A stretch of DNA of 22,843 nt, taken from contig NW_003105607.1 of assembly GCF_000003605.2 (NCBI RefSeq), forward strand, positions 295,880-318,722, given 5' to 3'. Of the stretch, positions 3,777-22,843 are shown in pieces. The notes under the pieces were generated by a model. The model saw only the letters and a program-made list of their open reading frames with translations. It did not search any database and was not told where the DNA came from. How positions within the stretch are numbered: position 1 is the first letter of the stretch; the number at the start of each line of letters is the position of its first letter. This stretch comes from Saccoglossus kowalevskii. Its lineage: Eukaryota; Hemichordata; Enteropneusta; Harrimaniidae. The position numbers and the translations under genes were made by a program.

Positions 3777-4340
3777 AGGTGAAGTCAAGCTAAACAACAT
3801 AATGCTCCCTAAAGAAAGAGCTCCACAAATTTAGAAGAAATAAATAAGAAAAGAAATGAAATGAAGAAAAAAAGTAATGGAAATTAGATATTATTAACTA
3901 TTTTAGTCGTTAAAATAGAATGACACGTTTTTGTCACTTGTAGTGGTCAACAGGTTATATATCACCTATATAACCTACTCACATCGATAAATTGTACACA
4001 ATATAAGGAATTTTGAGCATTTGGTAGAAAAAAAAGGAATATTTTTAGTTGCTTGACAACTATTTTATATGCAATATGCTACCATTTTCTAAACTTTCAG
4101 CCAATTTGAAGTTAAAGATGAAATCATTTTCCCAATTTCTGACAACAGTGGATATGATCTCATAGTTTACCCATAATCCTTTGCTGAAGAATCAAGATGG
4201 TGGAGTATATACATTAATGAAAAGTTGAATATCAAGAGAATGAAAAGTGATATACAAAAAACTGTAAATTGTATGTTCTTACATTTGCCGAGCTCTTTCA
4301 TCTGGGAGTATTATGTTGTTAGCCTTAACTTTTCATTTAA
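3777..4340 (-). mobile_element. TTAA-site palindromic element, shorter copy (564 bp)
   Basis: This non-autonomous element has inverted ends that both carry ACAACATAAT: left AGGTGAAGTCAAGCTAA then ACAACATAAT, right the same block in reverse complement. It is homologous, in reverse orientation, to the 857-bp element at 12691-13547, including the central block CCTACTCACAT, but it has lost most of one arm. It sits inside a dispersed repeat. Comparison with the intact copy shows insertion at TTAA, with left flank TTGA (one mutation) and right flank TTAA. TTAA duplication is the hallmark of piggyBac-type transposases, but these ends do not begin with the usual CC of piggyBac, so the class is an inference. 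It has no ORF. Confidence 0.82.
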
Positions 4341-4344
4341 TTAA

Positions 4345-4680: not shown

Positions 4681-5097
4681 ATAGCGAACTATGAGAGCAA
4701 ACCACGTACAGATCGTGGTTTATTGGGTATGCGCACACAAAAACAAAAACGCAGTGTATTTCAACGACCAGGTGGTTACATAGTATAGCCAACTGTGAAA
4801 GCAAACCGCGTACAGATCGTGGTTTATTGGGTATGCGCACACAAAAACAAAAACGCAGTGTATTTCAACGACCAGGTGGTTACATAGTATAGCGAACAGT
4901 GAAGGCAAACCACGTACAGATCGTGGTTTATTGGGTATGCACACACACAAACAAAAACGCAGTGTATTTCAACGACCAGGTGGTTACATAGTATAGCGAA
5001 CAGTGAAGGCAAACCACGTACAGATCGTGGTTTATTGGGTATGCGCACACACAAACAAAAACGCAGTGTTGTTCAACGAGGTTATGGTTACATATTA
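4681..5097 (+). repeat. Tandem repeat, four 104-bp units
   Basis: Units begin near 4681, 4785, 4889 and 4993 and are nearly identical. The last decays after about 5070. Each unit contains an inverted repeat, ACCACG-TACAGAT-CGTGGT (the second unit has ACCGCG), that can form a 6-bp stem with a 7-base loop. Each also has an ACACAAAAACAAAAACG stretch. The period is not a multiple of three, so the similar short minus-strand reading frames come from the repeat and are not genes. Confidence 0.93.
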
Positions 5098-6049: not shown

Positions 6050-6486
6050 TGAATTGACAGTACGTACCTCTAATTCGAATCAACAATACGTATCAAAAAA
6101 CTGATATATCAAATATTCGAATTAACAGTACGTACCACTCATTCGAATAAACATGATGAACTATTCAAATTAATAGTACATTCGAAATGGCAGTATGTAC
6201 TATAAATTCAAATTGACTGTTCGTACCACTAATTCGAGTTGAAAGTTATTTGAGGTAGTACGTACAGCTAATTCGAATTGGTCGTTCGTACCACTGATTC
6301 GAATTGGCAGTACGTACCACTAATTTGAATTAACAAAAACACCACTAATTCTAATTGATAGTAGTAGTATATTGATAATTTTAATGTATTATTAAATATA
6401 CTTGACGGTACGTATCACTAATTCGAATTGGCCGTTCGTACTATTCATTCGAATTGACAGTACGTACCACTAATTCGAATTAATTC
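6050..6486 (+). repeat. Degenerate minisatellite of alternating palindromes
   Basis: An imperfect array, about 26 bp where regular, alternates CAGTACGTACCACT with AATTCGAATTG. I count ten ATTCGA cores (near 6071, 6117, 6142, 6180, 6231, 6270, 6297, 6420, 6448 and 6472). Both AATTCGAATT and GTACGTAC are self-complementary. Units have decayed unevenly, and the middle (about 6330-6410) has lost the pattern. Confidence 0.85.
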
Positions 6487-8483: not shown

Positions 8484-9008
8484 CAACCACAGTCTACTAG
8501 AGAGATATCTCTGTGGTACTGTTTGATATAGCACTTATCATTTACAGTCGTTTTCTCATTATCGTGGTGAAGGCTGTGTTTGCACTGAACTATTGCAGAG
8601 GTGGTCGATATTGCCAAAGACGTATAACCATATCAAGCATAATTATCTTTATATAAAATCTTGCAAGATATATCTTGATTACTTTGGGTGTTTAGGATTT
8701 AATATTTCACAAGATCCTGTTACATTGTGACATAACACACATGTAAATGAGTAAATTCTCATTCGCCATTTTGCTCACATCGAATTGATGCTTTTCTAAT
8801 GGCATTGGTTAAATTTCCAAATCAACGCCGTTTCTTCTGAAAATAACGCATTTATTGTCGGGGAATTCATACAGGGTTACTGTATGTATTTAGTAGTAGT
8901 TTGACAGATATCTGCATACTCAGTATAAACGTAGTTTTTGATTTTCCTTATGTGTCATAACATTTATCATATGCGAATCTCAACATGCTGTGTTTGTTAC
9001 TCAGGATA
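8484..9008 (+). other. Upstream flank and probable 3' end of a 5' intron
   Basis: The stretch just before the first recognised exon ends in a pyrimidine-rich run and CAG (TGTTTGTTACTCAG, AG at 9003-9004), followed four bases later by the ATG. This resembles a splice acceptor, so an unseen upstream exon, non-coding or with a short N-terminus, is likely. I found no TATA box or initiator that I would call. Confidence 0.45.
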
Positions 9009-9171
9009 ATGGAGACAGTAATAAAAAAAGGATTGTTATCCACACCAAAATATGTACCTAATTGGTATTTATATGACACACATGGGTCAAGTCTGTTTGC
9101 CAAGCTTGCCGTGGAAAGTCCTTACTACCATCTTTATAGAACGGAAAAAAGTATTCTAGAACAAAACGCGG
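9009..9171 (+). CDS. egtD-like: EgtD-like gene, coding exon 1
   Basis: Encodes residues 1-54 and the first base of codon 55. The donor is GCGG|GTAAGTT. The ATG has A at -3 and G at +4, a good Kozak context. However, the protein starts about 17 residues short of mycobacterial EgtD, and a likely splice acceptor lies at 9003-9004. An in-frame ATG at 8985 would add eight residues (MLCLLLRI) if no splicing occurs there. The true N-terminus is therefore open. Confidence 0.88.
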
Positions 9172-12100
9172 GTAAGTTGGTATATCATTGAGGAACAGTG
9201 GAAGTCCCGATGCCGTTTATTCCGTGACTGCGTTTATTTGTTGGCATTATGCACTGTATTATACAGGTAAAAAAGAGTAGCGTATTGATGATAGTAGAGA
9301 TAAACTGTTATCACACAGTCTGATAGCAAGCCACAATTTGACTCTAGACACAGATCTAAGTTTGAAACAGATTCTGTCGTCTCATTAGTCTCCAGGTAAT
9401 TATAGAATAATTGGTCTATAATTACTAAACTTCGCTATAAAGTACAAAACATTTATATATTGAATGTGAAATTAAACTTTTTGGCTTCTTTGTATATTTT
9501 TTTAAATTAATTTCTGTTGAAATTCAGTGTCATACGAATAAAAAAAGAAATCGGCCACGAGGGCGAACAATTAGTTATTATTGGAATTGAATTCCTATGG
9601 TAGAATCTCCTTGGCAGCAGTTTAGTTTTAACATTGTAGTAATGTGAAATATAATTCTGAATGAATCAAAGCTCGAGTTACGTTTAATTAGTTATGTATC
9701 TTAGCCCATGTGCGTGAAAGACACAAGTAATATCGATTACGGTAAATCACGACTTGATGGTACGTACCCCATTACAGCGTGCATTCTCGTGTGAAAGTCA
9801 ATGGTACCTCTTCGTACCCTGCAGTGCATTTGAAATAGAAATTCTCGCAAATACTGGTAAATTTATTAAGTTTCACCTAATGCCGGTGTCTGTAATGAAA
9901 GAAGATCTGGATAATCCATTGCAAATTTAGCCTATTATGTACATGGCAGTATATGAATTATAGTATAGTAATATTTGGTAATCGCTGTCCTACGTAACGA
10001 ATTGGTAATTGATAACAGTCATAAATGTAAGTGCTAGAAAATCACTAAAATCGATTTGTAAATAAGATATGTATGTAAGACAACAAACCAAGCTGACTGA
10101 CGAGACCTAAGCACTTTGCCTTATTCTGATATTGGCAAAATACAAGTATGTAAAAGGTAAAACAAAATAGAAGCGTTAATTGTTTTATTCGTCGGTATTC
10201 CTTGCTGTTAAGCATTCACGATAGGCGGTTTTATGGAACTCAGGTGCGCTGAGCAAAAAACAATCAGTGACGTTCACAATTTTTGCGCGAAATAGACAAC
10301 AATATGCACCTTCTGACAGTGACGACCTTCGTTCTCTTGCTGTCGAAAGCACCAATAAAGCAATGTGTGACGTCAATTAGTTTGTATCATTTGGCGGGGG
10401 TACGTAGAAAGTGGTTGAGTGTAACCCCGAACACAGCTTACATAGATTTGATGTATATTGCTAATTCAATGCGCCGGAAGTTCATCCGTCATCCATCATA
10501 CGCCCATTCTGTGTAGGAACGCGATACATTAAACTCTCCAACTTTCACTATAAATAAATCCCCTTTCCCGTATAAAACGTTTAATCCTCTTGTTCAGACT
10601 TTTTTATAATGAACGCGTACTGTACGCGGCGCTTTAAAAGTTACGACGTTCCATTAGGCACTACGCTGCGTCCACTGGGGAAATCAATGCATGCGTTACC
10701 GTGACTGGTATTTTTTTAGACGAGACCCATCCCACGTAAAAAAAAACAATGTAAGGCCCGATGCAGTCCCAACTGTGTAATTATAAATGACATCCCTACG
10801 TGTAGCTTAATGGTTGCGTCAGTGACTGTAATGTTAAGTTAATTAATGCACTTGTCAAATTTGGATGTCAAAAATTAAGTGGTGTAAAATTGTAAAATCA
10901 TAGAGGTAGCCGTACGTTACATGGTCACAGGAAGTTTCATGAATTTGTCGATATTGACCTTTAGCCACAACATCCATACGCCCACCCCAGCTGTAGTGAG
11001 TCTTTATGTTACTAACGGTGCAAGCCAACCGTAGACTTACTTTTCTCATCGGAAGACGAATAGATTTGCATTATAATTTTGACGCGATCCGATGCAGAAA
11101 CGCTCACTCTAAAATAGCTACTCCCATATTTCAGGGGATGACGTCATGTAAAGATGCAATTTGTTAATTTTAAATTTTGCAGTAAACAAATGGGTCAACA
11201 TTAATCATTATTTGTTTTCCTTGTTTCCCAAATGCGTTCGAGCATAGACTCTATACAATTTATTGTTCAAGGAAAATGTGGATGTTCACAGGAATGATCT
11301 GTAGCCAGTTCTTGACTAGTGGTGGTGCGTATTAATCGCTGGAAAATACAACTCGTTGATACAAATTGTACATATTTAAGAGTTTCTCGATAAACAAATT
11401 CACATCGAGGTAAATAATTTTTAAAACACCTACACTAATATTGACATTGAACACGAAAAAATAGATTCAAATCAGCGAACCAGTATTGGATTACTGCAAT
11501 ACCCTATAGGCGCACAATTTATGCGCATGCGCAAATGATCTATATTTTTTAGATACTATAAAATTGAATGTTTTGAAATTAGGTTTTATGTGGCAGGTGT
11601 ACGGTTCATTATTAAAATTAAATTTAAAAAAAATACGTATTCTATGTTCCATACCACCCCAACTTACTGATTTGCAATTGGCACTATGCGCAAAACAAAC
11701 AATCAATAAAAACAAACAAAGTAATTATACATCCTTATCGCGAGAGTTCAATAATAATTTGTATTTTCGGGGGAATACGACAAACCCGTCCTCTACAGCA
11801 ATGTAACTACTTTGTGATATGTACTTCAATTTCATATATAATGAAATACCGTGTGTTGTCGCTTTCATTACAGATGAAATTGTATCTGATTTAGAAGATG
11901 TCGTTTTATGCGAACTCGGTGCTGGCAGCTCTACCAAGACAACAATTTTATTGTCGGCCTTGGTGAAAAGAAACACAACAGTGACATTTATTCCTATAGA
12001 TCAGGCTAAAGGTATGAATAGTCGAATACTTTAATGTGGAATTTTAAAGAAGGCATCCGTATTGCTTCGAAAAAGTTGAACCTCATATAATGCTTGAGGT

Positions 12101-15100
12101 ATATCAGTAATGTTTAACTTTCCGTCAGGTTGTATAAAGCGTAGTGTGGTTGCTACACATAATTTACTGTTTGTGGCTTAATTGACAAAATGTATACAAA
12201 TACTTTATATACAATATTTTTAATTATCTTGCAGACTTTTTGGAAGACAGTGTCAAAATATTACTGCAGCGTTTCAACATTGGTTTAGTAGTGAAGCCAT
12301 TCGCCGGGGATTATATTGATGGTTTAAAACATATAAAGGACATTCACCAGAATAAACTTATCATTTGGCTTGGAACTAGTATTAGTAATGTGCCAATGAA
12401 GGATTTGAAGTCAATCCTGGTACACATTAACAAAACAATGGGTACATGAAATGTCAAATTTATTGATAAATATTTATCGATAAATATATTTAAGTTATTT
12501 GGAATATAAAGCTGTGTACTAATCAATATTCAATATTATCATACTGTATAATATATCCCAGTAATCGGTTTGGTTTGAACGTTGAAATGGTGGATTTAGT
12601 TGGGTTGAATCGGGTTGGTGAATATCAATTTGAATATTGCTCGCAGTTTGGTACTCCTGGTCAAACTCACGCTAGAAACTAAATTGTGATTTAAAGGAAA
12701 CATCAACCCAAACAACATAATGACCCCTGTAGAAAAAGCTCTACAAATGTAAGAGAATGCAATTTACATTTTTTTATATCACTTTTCATTCTCTAGATAT
12801 TCAACTTTTCATCAGTATTATGTAGTCAGCCATCTTGATTTTCAAGCAAAGGATTATGGGTAAAGTATGACATCATAGAATCTGTTGTCAGAAATTGGGG
12901 AAATGATTTCATCTATAACTTCAAAAGTTTAACTTCAAATTGGCTGAAATTTTAGAGAGTGGAAGCATGCATGTACTGGGGCCATCCATGTTTATAAAAT
13001 AGTTGTCATGGAAACAGAACTGAAAATATGTATTTTTATGTTTTTCTACCAAATTTTCAAATTTCCTTATATTGCATACAATTTACCAATGTGAGTAGGT
13101 TATACAGGTGATATATCACATGTTGACCACAAAAAGGGGACACAAAAGTGTCATTTTATATTTCACGACTAAAATATCGATTTTTATTTTTTAACGTTTT
13201 TAGCAATATCTTCACTTCATGTGTATTTGTAATATTCTAATTTCCACTACTATAATTATATACATGAGTAATATGCACAACAAAAATTTTAACTAATTCG
13301 CATCAGTATTTCTCATGTTATAGATGAAATAATTTTCTCAATTTTTGACAACAGATTCTATGATGTCATACTTTGCCCATAATCCTTTGCTTGCGAATCA
13401 AGATGGCTGACTACATAATAATGATATAAAGTTGAATATCTAGAGAATGAAAAGTGATATAAAAAAAACTGTAAATTGCATTCTCCTACATTTGTGGACC
13501 TTTTTCTTCAGGGGTCATTATGTTGCTTAGATTGATGTTTTCTTTAATAATACTAAAGTGCCATTTTTAACAATATTAGGATTTGTATCATTAATATTAT
13601 ATGACTTTGTTTCATTATATACCATCCAGCAACGTTTTGAAATATTAAGAAATTATTTCACAATCGAAACCAGTACAAGAAGGACAATTTTTACGATATT
13701 TCGGACACCTTGTTTCTCGAGTCCACTAAATCAGTGAAACCTAGTTAATAACATTTCTTGCCACTTTTATATCGATTAATTACAATGTGCAATATTAAAT
13801 ATGGCACGGTAAGTAAATCGTCAATATCTCTTGATAAGATTGTAAAGTTTACATAGCGCCATTACTGCATATATGTTAAATTTCCAACATTTGAACATTT
13901 CATGTTCTTCCCGCCATTCTGCTAATTGTAAACAACCCCTCCGCTGGTTTCCGCTATGTATACAACCAACTCGAATATGTTGTTAAATTAGCGTAAAATG
14001 GGTTACGAGGTCCGGCCTTATGTCAAAGCAAATGTTCTCCAACGTCAACAAATGTATCATTTTATATTACATCAGGGGGTAGTCTCGTTATATGTACCGT
14101 GCAATGCATGTTTGCTTAAAGTTGAATTCCTACAATTGTATGTTCTGTCGAAAACCTTACAATGACCCCTGTAATCACACTACGAACTCTGGAATCTGTA
14201 AAGTTCACGAGAAACCATGTCCAACTTGCATTCTAGAATTGAATTCAGAAGTACCTCTAAACAACATGTATTCAACATTGATAATGATGATTGATTCAGA
14301 GATTAAATACAGCTTCATTTTAGGATATGTTGCAAAACCAACTGATTATATAACTGTTCATGGTGATCACAATAATCGGTGGTATTCTCCATTTATTACG
14401 AAGTGGGGATGTCATTTATATGTTAACTCAAATACTCGGATGTTTTTTTTGGCCCGCATCCTACATATTACACAACCCCGGGAAAGAATATGTTTCTTGT
14501 TTTATCGTTTGTGTGCTTTAGCAATTGATTTGTTTTATTACAATGTAATTATGAGTGATTTCATTTAAAGGGGACAATGACAGATTATTGGTTGGTATTG
14601 ACATCACGCAAGACAAAGAGGAAGTGGTCACCATGTACAGCCATGTTCAAACATGGGCACCATTCAACTTTAATGTCCTGACCAGATTGAATCGAGAATT
14701 CGGAGCGGATTTTAAACATGCAAACTTCGTTATGTACACAAATTATGTTGTTAGTGATGATAAGGATGGTATTGTCGAAAGCCCGCAGTATGTCCAACAC
14801 GCTCTCAAAAGTACGTGTCAACATCACGTTCGTGTAGGTGAGTAACCGTCGAGCCCGGCCGTTGAGTAACAATCGATAACGTAATGTATACGTGCCAACA
14901 AACGAGAGTCATTTAACTATTTAAATATTCACTACATACATTGATAGATTTTTTAAATCTCCATTAGATTCGATTACAACTATTTTGTTATAGCTATTTA
15001 AGCAAATTACTTTTTATTTGGCGCAATACGTACTCATTTACTTGTAGTAAAGGACTGCTTGAACACAACTTCTGTTTCAATGATTAACGCAAGTTTACCC

Positions 15101-15398
15101 GATCGCACCACTCTCAGTATAATAAACTCACTTCTACATCCATAAGGTCAACAATTCTCAAAATGAGTTATAACACACTGCTCTCTTTGCAGATGATATG
15201 GATGAAATACTCCATTTTGAAGAGGGGGAGTTGTTTTATTGTAATGAGTTAGAGCATCTGAGTTTAAAATGGAACTGGAAACAGTTTGCAGACACAATGA
15301 AGAAAGGAGGATTACACATTGAAAAGACTTGGAGCGACAGTGGAAACAAGTTTGGGTTAGCTCGATTGAGAAAAATAAACTTATTTAATACTATTTAG
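9009..15398 (+). CDS. egtD-like: EgtD-type SAM-dependent amino-acid N-methyltransferase, five coding exons
   Basis: Five exons (9009-9171, 11874-12011, 12235-12441, 14571-14837, 15193-15398) join into 326 residues. Bacterial EgtD is about 320 residues and makes hercynine from histidine with three SAM molecules, the first step to ergothioneine. Seen: PKYVPNWYLYD (14-23) and SPYYHLYRTE (37-46), matching the family N-terminal substrate region with Tyr22 and Tyr39 at the places of EgtD Tyr39 and Tyr56. SAM motif I is ELGAGSSTKT (68-77), the acidic motif GDY is 125-127, and LGTSISN (146-152) has Asn152 at the place of EgtD Asn166. LLVGIDITQD (175-184) and Tyr192 (EgtD Tyr206) follow, then the FNFNVLTRLNREFGADF block (201-217) and the C-terminal HHVRV...FEEGE region. 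The loop carrying Glu282/Ser284 in EgtD is altered and longer. A cytosolic soluble enzyme is expected: I see no signal peptide or membrane span. Family membership is firm; the substrate is not. Confidence 0.93.
9172..11873 (+). other. Intron 1 (2702 bp, phase 1)
   Basis: It runs from GTAAGTTGG to TTTCATTACAG. It has no recognised element. It holds CRE palindromes TGACGTCA at 10368-10375 and 11139-11146 and a 7-bp hairpin, CGCGTAC-T-GTACGCG, at 10614-10628. ORFs at 10185-10516 and 11491-11806 occur on both strands over the same bases and show no family features. Confidence 0.8.
11874..12011 (+). CDS. egtD-like: EgtD-like gene, coding exon 2
   Basis: Residues 55-100. The acceptor is CATTACAG|AT. 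The split codon G|AT restores Asp55, giving the family-like EQNADEI across the junction. It carries SAM-binding motif I (ELGAGSSTKT) and the following FIPIDQAK strand. The donor is AAAG|GTATGA, leaving phase 1. Confidence 0.92.
12012..12234 (+). other. Intron 2 (223 bp, phase 1)
   Basis: GTATGA to TTATCTTGCAG. It is short and AT-rich, with nothing else recognised. Confidence 0.85.
12235..12441 (+). CDS. egtD-like: EgtD-like gene, coding exon 3
   Basis: Residues 101-169. The acceptor is ATCTTGCAG|AC, with split codon G|AC for Asp101. It encodes the acidic GDY motif (125-127, family GDF) and LIIWLGTSISN (142-152), the strand and turn that ends in the substrate-binding Asn of EgtD. The family consensus is closer to GSSIGN, so Gly-to-Ser at 151 is a mild departure. 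The donor is ATGG|GTACAT, phase 1. Confidence 0.92.
12691..13547 (+). mobile_element. TTAA-flanked long palindromic element in intron 3 (857 bp including TTAA)
   Basis: The ends are TTAAAGGAAACATCAA and its near reverse complement TTGATGTTTTCTTTAA. The inverted arms are about 226 bp each (12691-12916 and 13321-13547) and share blocks such as GTAGAATGACC-like termini, ATTCTCTAGATATTCAACTT and GATTATGGGTAAAGTATGAC. A roughly 400-bp centre links them. There is no transposase ORF, so it is a non-autonomous foldback/MITE-type element. It is homologous to 3777-4340, where an empty site shows TTAA targeting. Here TTAA flanks both sides. In the pre-mRNA the arms could pair into a long hairpin. Confidence 0.88.
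14092..14568 (+). CDS. Unplaced 158-codon Cys/His-rich ORF inside intron 3
   Basis: This is the longest non-repetitive ORF that is not an exon. It is in sense orientation and ends just before exon 4. The N-terminal third has eight possible zinc ligands in four pairs: C16-x2-C19, C27-x-H29, C36-x2-H39, C43-x2-C46. This resembles a RING-like cross-brace order, but the spacings are not those of a standard RING. The rest mixes hydrophobic and aromatic segments (YSFILGYVAKPTDY, YSPFITKWGCHLYV) with a hydrophobic tail. A possible acceptor (ATATTACATCAG) lies just upstream of the ATG. It could be an alternative exon, a transposon relic or chance. I do not recognise it. Confidence 0.3.
   Translation: MYRAMHVCLKLNSYNCMFCRKPYNDPCNHTTNSGICKVHEKPCPTCILELNSEVPLNNMYSTLIMMIDSEIKYSFILGYVAKPTDYITVHGDHNNRWYSPFITKWGCHLYVNSNTRMFFLARILHITQPRERICFLFYRLCALAIDLFYYNVIMSDFI
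14571..14837 (+). CDS. egtD-like: EgtD-like gene, coding exon 4
   Basis: Residues 170-258. It encodes GDNDRLLVGIDITQD, Tyr192 (EgtD Tyr206 position), the FNFNVLTRLNREFGADF block and VQHALKSTCQHHVRV (244-258). That last block aligns without gaps, by my memory of the family, with the strand that carries EgtD Met252; the residue here is His246. About seven residues (around 235-243) are extra relative to bacterial EgtD. The donor is GTAG|GTGAGT, a near-perfect consensus, phase 1. Confidence 0.92.
14838..15192 (+). other. Intron 4 (355 bp, phase 1)
   Basis: GTGAGT to CTCTCTTTGCAG, with a strong pyrimidine tract. Nothing else is recognised. Confidence 0.88.
15193..15398 (+). CDS. egtD-like: EgtD-like gene, terminal coding exon 5
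   Basis: Residues 259-326 and the TAG stop. The split codon G|AT gives Asp259. It holds ILHFEEGE (264-271), the lengthened loop LFYCNELEHLS (272-282), then LKWNWKQF (283-290) and TWSDSGNKFGLARL (304-317), the conserved C-terminal strand of the family (bacterial W-T-D-P...F-x-L). A short basic tail, RKINLFNTI, follows. Confidence 0.92.
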
Positions 15399-15437
15399 AA
15401 TTTCTGAATAGCGAAGCTAGAACGCCAGAAGTCATTA

Positions 15438-15443
15438 AATAAA
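15438..15443 (+). terminator. Poly(A) signal AATAAA of the EgtD-like gene
   Basis: A canonical AATAAA starts 40 bases after the stop codon. It is followed by a T/G-rich stretch (TTTTGTAAAGTTAGTGTTTGG) of the kind that promotes cleavage. This implies a very short 3' UTR of roughly 60 bases. A second AATAAA at about 15669 could be an alternative. Confidence 0.6.
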
Positions 15444-19388: not shown

Positions 19389-19982
19389 TCAGGGGGGAAT
19401 CTCGTCTCGTCTCTCTATCGCGTCCCCTTGAGGTACGGGATCGGGAAAGTCACTTAAGCTTTTACAGTCAAATAGAGGCACGCAACGAAATACGTTTCAA
19501 TTCTCGTCTTAGTCGGTCAGTCGAGCACTCTATAAGACACAGCGCCCTGGGGAAAAGTCCCCAAGACTATCGCAAGGCTGACCAAGACTGCCCTTAGACT
19601 GCGTCTGTCCTGGTGTACTCACCAAGACCAACTAAAACAACTTTATTCATTTTCAAAACCTTAACCAATTACAAAGCAGTTAAAAGACTCTAGGACGTAA
19701 CCTTCAATCATACAGCCAATCACACTAAGTACTGGACACGTCATATCTTTTGATTAATCGTTCACGATATAACTAACTGTGAATACCAAATGTCAGAAAT
19801 AGTAGTCCGAATAGCGACGGTTATATCATAATTAGTTCCAAATCACTGAACCAAGTTCCGTCCAGGACCTCGCATGGGCCTAAACGATGACAGATATAAC
19901 ACAGCCATTCGCTAGTACTAGTAATCAGCTAATAAAGTCGATCAACAGATACGTGCAAACAATTTCATCATACATGCATGAC
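19389..19982 (+). repeat. Long inverted repeat, left arm
   Basis: It aligns in reverse complement to 20430-21050, starting at TCAGGGGGGAA. Shared blocks are GGGATCGGGAAAGTCACTTA, CACTCTATAAGACACAGCGC, CCAATCACACTAAGTACTG and TTAGTTCCAAATCACTGA. Divergence is by point changes and a few indels; the right arm has about 36 extra bases near 20800-20840. The arm contains several AAGACT/ACCAAGAC short repeats. An ORF at 19887-20105 is not conserved with the other arm. Confidence 0.92.
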
Positions 19983-20124
19983 GGTGATATCCCCGGTCAT
20001 TCAAATCGCAAGTGTGCCATACAATTTCTTGTAAAAAATATAATTTATATTAATTCATACGTATATGCGGCACGGCAATTTGTGGCGTTTATGGCTGTTC
20101 GTTAAATTATGATGATAACTTTTG

Positions 20125-20428
20125 GTTATGATTTATCAAACTTTTAATTCAAATGACATACTACTAGTACGTATTTTGAATTCAAAAGTTAAAGTGCATA
20201 CTTTTAACTTTTAAATCAAAGGTCATAATCACTGGTACGCACTTTTAAATCAAAGATAATATCACTGGTACTCATTTTTAAATCAAAAGTGCTGTTAACG
20301 GCATTTACTTTTTAATCAAAAGTCATATCACTGGCACAAACTTTTAAGTCAAAGGTCATATTACTGCTACGCACTTTTAAATCAAAGGTCATATCACTGG
20401 TACATACTTTTAAATCAAAGGTCATACT
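20125..20428 (+). repeat. 33-bp minisatellite, inner block
   Basis: Diverged copies of ACTTTTAAATCAAAGGTCAT followed by ATCACTGGTACGC lie between the two inverted arms, in the same orientation as the larger array at 21110-21800. The first units are the most decayed. The right arm begins directly after the last unit. Confidence 0.9.
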
Positions 20429-20429
20429 G

Positions 20430-21050
20430 TCATGAATTTGTTTACGCGTATCTGTTGACCGACTTAATTAGTTGATTATTAGCGAATTGCTGTGTTATGT
20501 TTGTCATCGTTTAGGCCTATTTGAAGTTTTGGACGGAACTTGGCTCAGTGATTTGGAACTAATTACGAGATAAACCGCCGCTATTTAGACTACTCATTCT
20601 GACAGTTGGTATCCGTAGTTATTAATGTAGTGAACGATTAATCAAACCATATGACGTATTCAGTACTTAGTGTGATTGGCTTTATGATTGGAGGTTACGC
20701 CCTAGAGTCTTTTTATTGTATTGTAATTGGTTAGAGTTTTGAAAATGAATACAGAGAGTTTGAGTTGGTCTTGGGGAGCACAGCACGATAGACGCAGTCG
20801 AGGGCAGTCCTGGAGAGCCTGGGGGCGAGTGTTGACGTAGTCTAAGAGAGTCTTGGGTCAGCCTTGCGATAGTCTTGGGAATTTTTCCCCAGGGCGCTGT
20901 GTCTTATAGAGTGCTCGATTGACCGACTAAGACGAGAGCTGAAACGTATTTCGTTGTGTGTGTCTTATTTAACTGTAAAGCTTAAGTGACTTTCCCGATC
21001 CCGCACCTCAAGGGGACGAGATATAGAGACGAGACGAGTTTCCCCCCTGA
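20430..21050 (-). repeat. Long inverted repeat, right arm
   Basis: Reverse complement of 19389-19982. It is flanked on both sides by the same 33-bp minisatellite, which suggests insertion into an array or co-amplification with it. Its outer end, TTCCCCCCTGA, recurs about 35 bases further out (about 21082-21092), so the terminus is doubled. Confidence 0.92.
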
Positions 21051-21109
21051 CAAGTGTGGAGAACCCAGAGAGAGAACGATATTCCCCCCTGATAATACCA
21101 CTAGTACGC

Positions 21110-21800
21110 ACTTTTAAATCAAAGGTCATATTACTGCTATGCAATTTTAAATCAAAGGGCATATCACTGGTACACACTTTTAATTCAAAGGTCATATCAC
21201 TGGTACGCACTCTTCAATCAAATGTCATATCACTGTACACACGTACACTTTTAAAATCAGAGGTCATATTACTGGTACGCACTTTTAAATCAAAGGTCAT
21301 ATCACTGGTACACACTTTTAAATCAAAGGTCATATCACTGGTACGCACTTTTAAATCAAATGTCATATCACTGGTACACATGCACACTTTTAAATCAAAG
21401 GTCATATTACTGGTACGCACTTTTAAATCAAAGGTCATATCACTGGTACGCACTTTTAAATCAAAGGTCATATCACTGGTACGCACTTTTAAATCAAATG
21501 TCATATCACTGGTACACACGCACACTTTTAAATCAAAGGTCATATTACTGGTACGCACTTTAAATCAAAGTTCATATCACTGGTATGCACTTTTAAATCA
21601 AAGGTCATATCACTGGTACACTTTTAAATCAAAGGTCATATTACTGGTACGCACTTTTAAATCAAAGGTCATATCACTGGTAAACACTTTTAAATCAAAG
21701 GTCATATCACTGTTACGCACTTTTAAATCAAAGGTCATATATAACTACACTTGTAGTACACACTTTTAAATCAAAGGCCATATCACTGGTATGTACTTTT
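21110..21800 (+). repeat. 33-bp minisatellite, main array (about 20 units)
   Basis: The unit is ACTTTTAAATCAAAGGTCAT followed by ATCACTGGTACGC. The first 16 units fall into groups of four, starting at 21110, 21247, 21386 and 21524. The first unit of each group reads ATTACTG instead of ATCACTG. In the first three groups the fourth unit reads CAAATGTC and has a lengthened linker. Fifteen units keep ATCAAAG exactly. Because 33 is a multiple of three, long ORFs open on both strands, but they are only an 11-residue repeat. The array is cut at its 3' end by the element at 21803-22715. Confidence 0.95.
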
Positions 21801-21802
21801 AA

Positions 21803-22715
21803 GGTAGAGATGCAGTTTGCCTGACAGGTATTTTAATTAGTTAATTAGGAAACCAAGATGACCTCCCTTGTCCACAAAACTATATATTTACGGAAAGCTT
21901 ATTGTACGAAATTTAAAGTTTTGTTAGTATTTTATTTTTATGGACACTGTAGTTTGAAATATGCACAAAAATGCTTTTTTGGTCAAAAGTGATTTAAAAA
22001 AAATAGCTTCTAAACCATGCTTCTGTTTCCTGTCAAAATTGGTTTATGGGTACATCTGTTTACTATGAAGAAAGCGCCGTCTTGAAAACTGTCTACCAGT
22101 TGTCAATTTTGTAGGGCAGCAGCTCAAATTTCACTACTTCAAGTGTATGCATAAATTAACACCCAGGCTAGTTGTCTGTACGATTGCTGTAACACTCTTC
22201 AACTAAAAACAATGCCTCGACGGCGTTTTGAAGATAAACACATTGTCAATCATTTGAGAAAATTTCAAAACAAAAGGTCAAAGCGTCTCGGAGCTATATT
22301 TTTTAAGTTCTGGAAGGTGCACTAAAAAGAAGCTGAGATAATTGATAATTTGCATAACAATTCACTCAGTAAGAAGTTTGCTAATGCTCATAATTATAAT
22401 GGATGTTACAGTTTCAAATTTAAATGTATTATCGTTTTGTAAAAAGTTAAATACAGTGCATAATATGGAGATCCCGACATTTCTTTTTTTCATCATGTTT
22501 TTTTTTATTATTTATGTACAGCCTTGCTAAATCTTGCTAAGCATTCAAAAGAGATAATTTTCCACCTGTTATCTATATTTTAAAATCGTTTTTTGAGTAT
22601 GTTCCACTATTCACAATTCTACAAAATTGTAACAGTCTATAGCCAAGACTTTTTGGATAATAAAAGCAAAAAAAAAAAATTCACTCCCAAGTGCCCTAGA
22701 ACCTGCATCTCTACC
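21803..22715. mobile_element. TTAA-inserted non-autonomous element with 13-bp ends (913 bp)
   Basis: The perfect 13-bp terminal inverted repeats are GGTAGAGATGCAG (21803-21815) and CTGCATCTCTACC (22703-22715). Both are directly flanked by TTAA (21799-21802 and 22716-22719). Removing the element and one TTAA restores a minisatellite unit (ACTTTTAA + ATCAAA), so the target duplication is certain. It has no transposase: the longest ORF is 62 codons and AT-rich. TTAA duplication is typical of piggyBac-type transposition. The ends differ from those of the elements at 3777 and 12691, so it is a separate family. Confidence 0.93.
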
Positions 22716-22843
22716 TTAAATCAAAAGTTATGTTAACGGCATGTACTTTTTAATAAAGGGTCATATTACTGGTACGTACTTTTAATTCAAATGTCGTATT
22801 ACTGTACTTAATGTTAATTCAAATGTCGTATTACTGTACGTCA
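22716..22843 (+). repeat. 33-bp minisatellite, outer block (runs off the window)
   Basis: The array resumes after the inserted element (ATCAAAAGTTATG, then AATAAAGGGTCATATTACTG, then TTCAAATGTCGTATTACTG twice). Its units are more diverged than in the main array. It continues past the window end. Confidence 0.9.

What the first reader, a model, noticed from the sequence alone, without database searches (positions are those of the whole stretch)
9009..15398. Intron-bearing stand-alone EgtD-type methyltransferase in an animal-like genome
Seen: five exons splice to one 326-residue frame with family motifs end to end. Known: EgtD makes hercynine in bacteria; fungi use the fused Egt1; marine invertebrates carry OvoA for ovothiol, and many animals are thought to import ergothioneine. 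A separate EgtD-like gene without a sulfoxide synthase in the window suggests a betaine-forming step (hercynine or another trimethylated amino acid) of unclear use. Inference: it may supply an osmolyte, an antioxidant precursor or a new pathway.
Basis: partly seen in the sequence, partly recalled or inferred. Interest (0 to 1): 0.75.

Follow-up and report, generated by a model that had tools for sequence, protein, structure and literature searches.

The report
Intact EgtD-family gene, altered substrate pocket
An intron-bearing, probably animal gene encodes a relative of the bacterial enzyme that triply methylates the amino acid histidine, but the part of the active site that should recognise histidine has changed, so it probably makes a different methylated amino acid.

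Summary
Five exons (9009-15398, +) join through four GT-AG, phase-1 introns into one 326-residue frame that matches Pfam PF10017 end to end (E 7.9e-66, residues 3-318). It is the only gene a six-frame Pfam scan recognises in the window: a free-standing EgtD-family methyltransferase with no sulfoxide synthase found beside it. It is not a clean EgtD: 204.9 bits against the EgtD cut-off of 290.9, and 127.1 against the EasF cut-off of 205.55. Against 90 bacterial homologues (EgtB found in the stretch held for 86 of 90), the checked residues for SAM, alpha-amine and carboxylate are kept. The imidazole side is changed: Ala205 to Met, Thr213 to Trp, Met252 to His, one residue at 211-212 lost, and Glu-x-Ser-x-Lys reads His-x-Ser-x-Lys after a four-residue insertion. 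Best reading: a working alpha-amino-acid N-methyltransferase (betaine former) whose substrate is probably not histidine. Against it: a glutamate may still reach the pocket, other conserved columns differ too, and the tree groups it weakly with EgtB-linked EgtDs. Substrate, species and expression are untested; no animal sequences could be searched.

The parts
9009..9171 (+). coding exon 1 (residues 1-54 and part of codon 55; includes Tyr22, Phe30, Tyr40 = EgtD Tyr39, Phe47, Tyr56)
   Evidence: an acceptor-like AG at 9003-9004 leaves room for an upstream 5' exon (sequence; a guess)
9172..11873 (+). intron 1, 2702 nt, GTAAGT...CATTACAG, phase 1
11874..12011 (+). coding exon 2 (SAM motif ELGAGSSTKT and IPID)
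12012..12234 (+). intron 2, 223 nt, GTATGA...TCTTGCAG, phase 1
12235..12441 (+). coding exon 3 (WLGTSISN; Asn152 = EgtD Asn166)
12442..14570 (+). intron 3, 2129 nt, phase 1; holds a foldback repeat at about 12691-13547
14571..14837 (+). coding exon 4 (Met191, Tyr192, Trp198, His246 = EgtD 205, 206, 213, 252)
14838..15192 (+). intron 4, 355 nt, GTGAGT...CTTTGCAG, phase 1
   Evidence: (the 981-nt combination) and sequence
15193..15398 (+). coding exon 5 and stop codon (NELEHLSLKW; Ser282, Lys284 = EgtD Ser284, Lys286)
15434..15439 (+). ATTAAA polyadenylation-like signal
   Evidence: consensus match only

Best explanation
The gene makes a single-domain, SAM-dependent alpha-amino-acid N-methyltransferase of the PF10017 (EgtD) family. 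As in EgtD, the SAM loop and the residues that hold an amino acid's carboxylate and alpha-amine are intact, so it should bring SAM and a free alpha-amino acid together and methylate the amine, probably up to the betaine (inferred by homology). The side-chain pocket is rebuilt: the Thr that positions the imidazole-bound water is Trp, the neighbouring Ala is Met, Met252 is His, and the Glu-x-Ser-x-Lys motif is His-x-Ser-x-Lys after an insertion. The substrate is therefore most likely not histidine, and the product would be another amino-acid betaine, used as an end product (osmolyte, antioxidant or neuroactive compound) or as a precursor. Shown: gene structure, family, kept and lost residues. 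Inferred: activity, number of methylations, non-histidine substrate. Unknown: which amino acid; a side chain smaller or more hydrophobic than imidazole would fit the added Trp and Met.
For: Open spliced frame. PF10017 7.9e-66. Below the EgtD and EasF curated cut-offs. Tyr39, Phe47, Tyr56, Gly86, Gly88, Asp113, Gly161, Asn166, Tyr206, Ser284 and Lys286, each 90 of 90 in the bacterial set, are all kept. Changed: Ala205 (90 of 90), Thr213 (89 of 90 Thr, 1 Ser), Met252 (85 of 90), Gly211 (87 of 90; the gap falls at 211 in MAFFT, at 212 in the profile alignment), and Glu of E-x-S-x-K[YFH], present in 89 of 90. Six MAFFT settings and a profile alignment agree on Trp at 213 and His at 252. In PMC8593015 (passages) Thr213 and the Ala205 carbonyl position the water that binds the imidazole-type nitrogen, Tyr206, Ser284 and Tyr56 bind the carboxylate, and Asn166 binds the alpha-amine. 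The one bacterial homologue of 90 that lacks E-x-S-x-K[YFH], L087, also has no EgtB in the 6.9 kb held and has Ser213, Ala252, Gly282, so the pocket can change away from the ergothioneine link. No close bacterial relative: at most 32% identity to 91 bacterial rows, at most 33% over the best segment in 80 scanned loci, 25-31% in the 30 of 47 plasmid records listed.
Against: The residue at EgtD position 282 is not certain: six MAFFT runs give His280, but the profile alignment and A2 put Asn276 there with Glu277 adjacent, so a glutamate could still reach the pocket. Met252 is Ser in four EgtB-linked homologues (L081, L085, L086, L090), so a change there is not diagnostic. The protein departs at 16 of 55 highly conserved columns, including ones outside the pocket set such as Tyr57 to His, Phe159 to Trp, Gly165 to Ser and Asp208 to His, so some pocket changes may be general drift; the pocket excess (4 of 4, hypergeometric P 0.005) used columns chosen partly after seeing the data. 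The tree groups the window with the four EgtB-linked EgtDs L081, L085, L086, L090 (support 0.83, long branch, midpoint root), not with L087. Three other loci without EgtB (L016, L028, L075) keep the pocket residues. No animal relatives, structure model or assay.
Confidence: 0.6

Rival explanations
1. It is a true histidine N-alpha-methyltransferase that makes hercynine; the pocket is rebuilt but still binds histidine. With OvoA, which can couple cysteine to hercynine at C-2, such an animal could even make ergothioneine itself.
For: It scores higher on the EgtD model than on EasF (204.9 against 127.1). Glu277 lies one to three residues from the Glu282 slot, depending on the alignment. The tree groups it, weakly, with four EgtB-linked EgtDs. 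OvoA is present in marine metazoans (PMC4768315 passages) and couples cysteine with hercynine (PMC9103826 passages).
Against: EgtD equivalog cut-off missed; Thr213, 89 of 90 Thr in bacteria, is Trp and Ala205, 90 of 90, is Met. No EgtB- or OvoA-type domain found in the window.
Confidence: 0.22
2. A named special case, counted apart from the best explanation: it methylates an aromatic amino acid (tryptophan, tyrosine or a halogenated form), giving betaines such as hypaphorine or 6-bromohypaphorine found in marine invertebrates.
For: 6-bromohypaphorine occurs in sponges, a tunicate and a nudibranch, and that paper says nothing of its biosynthesis ('biosynth' 0 occurrences; PMC4377982 passages). 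EgtD was made to prefer tryptophan by changes at Met252 and Glu282 (recalled, Vit et al. 2015, not seen here), two sites also altered here.
Against: Trp198 and Met191 add bulk to the pocket rather than remove it. The species is unknown.
Confidence: 0.12
3. A decaying or non-catalytic copy.
For: Longest branch in the tree (2.16); 16 of 55 conserved columns changed; no RNA evidence available.
Against: No frameshift or in-frame stop, four GT-AG junctions, the checked SAM, carboxylate and amine residues kept, polyadenylation-like signal.
Confidence: 0.06

Closest known systems
EgtD, L-histidine N-alpha-methyltransferase (TIGR03438; PDB 4uy5-4uy7, 4pim, 7scf)
   Same: Full-length PF10017 match, SAM loop, Tyr39, Phe47, Tyr56, Asn166, Tyr206, Ser284
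   Different: About 30% identity; below the curated cut-off; Ala205, Thr213, Met252, the 211-212 loop and the E-x-S-x-K motif changed; insertions before EgtD 250 and before Ser284; no EgtB found in the window; intron-bearing eukaryotic gene
EasF-type family (TIGR03439)
   Same: Same superfamily, matches residues 2-314
   Different: 127.1 bits against a cut-off of 205.55, weaker than the EgtD model; that fungal Egt1 methyltransferase domains fall here is recalled, not tested
L087, PF10017 protein on a Streptomyces sp. NBC_01237 plasmid, no EgtB in the 6.9 kb held
   Same: Residues 213, 252, 282 altered (Ser, Ala, Gly) while Tyr39, Tyr56, Asn166, Tyr206, Ser284 are kept
   Different: Different replacements, bacterial, and the most distant of the 91 rows from the window in the tree
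OvoA of marine metazoans
   Same: Has a SAM-methyltransferase domain and belongs to thiohistidine metabolism (PMC4768315 passages)
   Different: Here no DinB or FGE-sulfatase domain was found, and the methyltransferase is PF10017

Membership tests
PF10017 (EgtD superfamily) | Profile score above the gathering cut-off over the full domain | tested here: met
   222.6 bits against 23, residues 3-318 to profile 3-303 of 304
EgtD (TIGR03438 equivalog) | Score at or above 290.9 bits | tested here: not met
   204.9 bits. One search also matched the seven bacterial rows of A2 but does not print their scores, so whether divergent EgtDs all pass was not shown
EgtD | SAM, carboxylate and amine residues (Tyr39, Phe47, Tyr56, Gly86, Gly88, Asp113, Asn166, Tyr206, Ser284) | tested here: met
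EgtD | Imidazole-side residues Ala205 and Thr213, and E-x-S-x-K | tested here: not met
   Met191, Trp198, H-L-S-L-K; which residue fills position 282 is unresolved
EgtD | EgtB (sulfoxide synthase) in the same genome | tested here: inconclusive
   None found in the window; the genome could not be searched (genome search did not complete)
EgtD | Trimethylates L-histidine | not testable with these tools
   needs an enzyme assay
EasF type (TIGR03439) | Score at or above 205.55 bits | tested here: not met
   127.1 bits
Egt1 (fused methyltransferase and sulfoxide synthase) | DinB and FGE-sulfatase domains in the same protein | tested here: not met
   No such Pfam match up to E 0.01 in six frames of the window (a domain split over short exons could be missed); the frame ends at a stop and a polyadenylation-like site
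OvoA | DinB + FGE-sulfatase + C-terminal methyltransferase | tested here: not met
   same limit

The most novel reading that the evidence does not exclude
The gene belongs to an animal branch of the EgtD family that has left histidine and makes a different amino-acid betaine in the animal's own cells: an enzymatic source for a marine-animal betaine that has no assigned biosynthetic gene.
Probability: 0.42. Interest if true: 0.7.

Novelty: new variant of a known kind. Interest (0 to 1): 0.47.

Why it matters
EgtD chemistry is known from bacteria and fungi, and a review says animals do not make ergothioneine but acquire it from the diet (PMC7653990, start of abstract seen in the listing). A eukaryotic, probably animal, stand-alone member with its methyl-transfer residues in place and a changed side-chain pocket is a direct, assayable candidate for betaine synthesis in an animal. 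It also warns that a name such as 'histidine N-alpha-methyltransferase-like', if given to such genes by similarity alone, may be wrong about the substrate.

Tried and rejected
Chance open frames: rejected by the full-length Pfam match. Bacterial contamination or recent transfer: four spliceosomal-type introns and no close bacterial relative seen, though the scan used two N-terminal peptide patterns and kept 80 of 347 relatives, leaning to actinobacteria and cyanobacteria. Viral relatives: three viral-contig scans gave none. A second gene: the six-frame Pfam scan gave only PF10017 and one sub-threshold ORF29 match (17.4 bits against 27). tRNA and Rfam families at gathering score: none. A tree has no fungal or animal sequences and cannot place the gene; the window is its longest branch and groups with L081, L085, L086, L090 at support 0.83. 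A profile search of solved structures gave EgtD entries (E 1e-111 or better) and then only weak matches, best DisA at 1.4e-4.

Seven looked for EgtD, hercynine or PF10017-type genes in animals or in general: 1 paper listed of 1; 25 of 1,079; 40 of 43; 20 of 3,477; 20 of 23; 10 of 7,486; 8 of 437. No title or abstract start listed there is about an animal EgtD; several lists were a small part of the hits, and the library lacks most subscription papers. Searches were for residues, tryptophan betaine and glycine betaine; one gave nothing used here. Gerdol et al. 2019 and PMC4729200 are not held. PMC11175523, PMC13342648 and PMC10200813 were looked through by search terms and gave nothing on this gene. 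My recollection that NCBI annotates 'histidine N-alpha-methyltransferase-like' genes in several invertebrates comes from no call.

Structure prediction was not run: the tool takes proteins the DNA gives letter for letter, and I judged that a spliced protein is not one.
Full report
What is there. Exons 9009-9171, 11874-12011, 12235-12441, 14571-14837 and 15193-15398 on the + strand join through four GT-AG introns, all phase 1, to 981 nt: 326 codons and a stop. Of 24 donor combinations four were open, differing by a few residues at two junctions. Pfam finds PF10017 over residues 3-318 at 7.9e-66. The coding part has 37.6% GC against 33.9% in its introns, and an ATTAAA starts 36 nt after the stop. 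An AG at 9003-9004 could be the acceptor of an upstream non-coding exon; this is a guess.

Surroundings. All six frames of the window, stops read as X, were scanned against Pfam at E up to 0.01: only pieces of this gene pass a curated cut-off. No tRNA and no Rfam family at gathering score. So no sulfoxide synthase (EgtB, Egt1 or OvoA type) was found in these 22.8 kb. The rest of the genome could not be searched, because the genome search did not answer in 18 tries.

Family. The protein misses the NCBIfam EgtD equivalog cut-off (204.9 against 290.9) and the EasF cut-off (127.1 against 205.55). The solved relatives at strong scores are EgtD structures (the next best is DisA at 1.4e-4). No close bacterial relative was seen: at most 32.0% identity and a median of 30.3% to 91 bacterial rows, which have a median of 51.2% among themselves; at most 33% over the best segment in the 80 loci; 25-31% in the 30 of 47 plasmid records listed. 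A caution: one search used two N-terminal peptide patterns and kept 80 of 347 relatives, so bacterial diversity was sampled with a bias.

Active site. I aligned the protein with M. smegmatis EgtD and 90 bacterial homologues (80 and 10 of the 47 plasmid records, fetched). EgtB was detected in the stretch held (3 to 11 kb) for 86 of the 90, which marks most of them as ergothioneine enzymes. Tyr39, Phe47, Tyr56, Gly86, Gly88, Asp113, Gly161, Asn166, Tyr206, Ser284 and Lys286, each 90 of 90 in bacteria, are all kept. PMC8593015 (passages) assigns the carboxylate to Tyr206, Ser284 and Tyr56 and the alpha-amine to Asn166; it describes an ordered water, set by Thr213 and the Ala205 carbonyl, that binds the imidazole-type nitrogen. 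On that side the window protein differs: Ala205 (90 of 90) is Met191; Thr213 (89 Thr, 1 Ser) is Trp198; Met252 (85 Met, 4 Ser, 1 Ala) is His246; one residue at 211-212 is lost (Gly211 in 87 of 90); and the motif E-x-S-x-K[YFH], found in 89 of 90 proteins, reads H-L-S-L-K after a four-residue insertion. Six MAFFT settings gave the same partners.

Limits of that reading. The profile alignment and the 8-row alignment put Asn276 in the Glu282 slot, with Glu277 next to it (low posterior), so a glutamate may still be near. Met252 is Ser in four EgtB-linked proteins, so it is not diagnostic. Overall 16 of 55 columns that are at least 95% conserved in bacteria differ here, among them Tyr57, Phe159, Gly165 and Asp208 outside my pocket set. 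The four pocket columns among the 55 (205, 211, 213, 282) all differ (hypergeometric P 0.005) and none of seven backbone columns does (P 0.08). The pocket columns were chosen partly after seeing the data, so the P value is only indicative. In the tree the window, the longest branch, groups with the four EgtB-linked EgtDs L081, L085, L086 and L090 at support 0.83, which does not favour a separate origin.

An unplanned control. One bacterial homologue, L087, is the only one of the 90 without E-x-S-x-K[YFH], and one of four without EgtB in the stretch held. It has Ser213, Ala252, Gly282. Only 3 kb on each side of it were fetched, and its record holds a second match to the query, which I did not fetch. 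So loss of the EgtB neighbour and of the histidine pocket go together once. The other three loci without EgtB (L016, L028, L075) kept the pocket residues; L028 and L075 lie near contig ends, L016 does not.

Mechanism. I commit to a working alpha-amino-acid N-methyltransferase, most likely betaine-forming, with a substrate other than histidine (0.6). Shown: gene structure, family, kept and lost residues. Inferred: catalysis, number of methyl transfers, non-histidine substrate. The added Trp and Met argue for a side chain smaller or more hydrophobic than imidazole, but the one-residue loop deletion could make room, so I do not name the amino acid.

The main rival is hercynine synthesis (0.22). 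It would be striking, since OvoA of marine animals (PMC4768315 passages) can couple cysteine with hercynine at C-2 (PMC9103826 passages), so EgtD plus OvoA could give ergothioneine. The residue evidence is against it but not decisive. Aromatic betaines such as 6-bromohypaphorine (PMC4377982 passages) are a third option (0.12), and a decaying copy a fourth (0.06).

Novelty. EgtD-type enzymes are a known kind; an intron-bearing, stand-alone member with this pocket is a variant. Seven paper searches listed no title or abstract start on an animal EgtD, in an incomplete library and with several lists capped. I recall, from no call, that automatic annotation names such genes in several invertebrates, so the gene's existence would not surprise a genome annotator; its chemistry is the open point.

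Noticed in passing
window 12691-13547 (intron 3) and 3937-4341: A foldback (palindromic, MITE-like) repeat of about 857 nt with 87-89% complementary arms sits in intron 3; pieces of a related copy (79-95% alike, both orientations) lie about 9 kb upstream.
   Followed up: partly
window 19389-21050: A larger foldback structure: nested inverted arms (217, 182 and 97 nt, 85-87% complementary) around a 33-nt tandem array at 20207-20426; a further array of the same unit at 21095-21802 and related copies at 22707-22841.
   Followed up: no
window 20990-21769: The longest stop-to-stop frame in the window (259 aa) reads the 33-nt repeat as an 11-residue repeating peptide; probably not a gene.
   Followed up: no
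window 4681-5079: A 104-nt tandem repeat, 3.8 copies, 95% matches, so probably recent.
   Followed up: no
window 6257-6481: A degenerate 26-nt tandem repeat, 8.9 copies, 66% matches.
   Followed up: no
L087 2941-3954: A Streptomyces plasmid PF10017 protein with no EgtB in the 6.9 kb held and with altered residues 213, 252 and 282; the same record holds a second match to the query. A bacterial EgtD relative of unknown substrate.
   Followed up: partly
L081, L085, L086, L090: EgtB-linked EgtDs with Ser instead of Met at position 252, so Met252 is probably not needed for histidine (inference from gene linkage).
   Followed up: partly
window 14652-14654 (Trp198 = EgtD Thr213), approximate: A review reports that Thr213 of a mycobacterial EgtD is phosphorylated by a kinase (PMC9103826 passages); the window protein has Trp there, so that control could not apply.
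   Followed up: no
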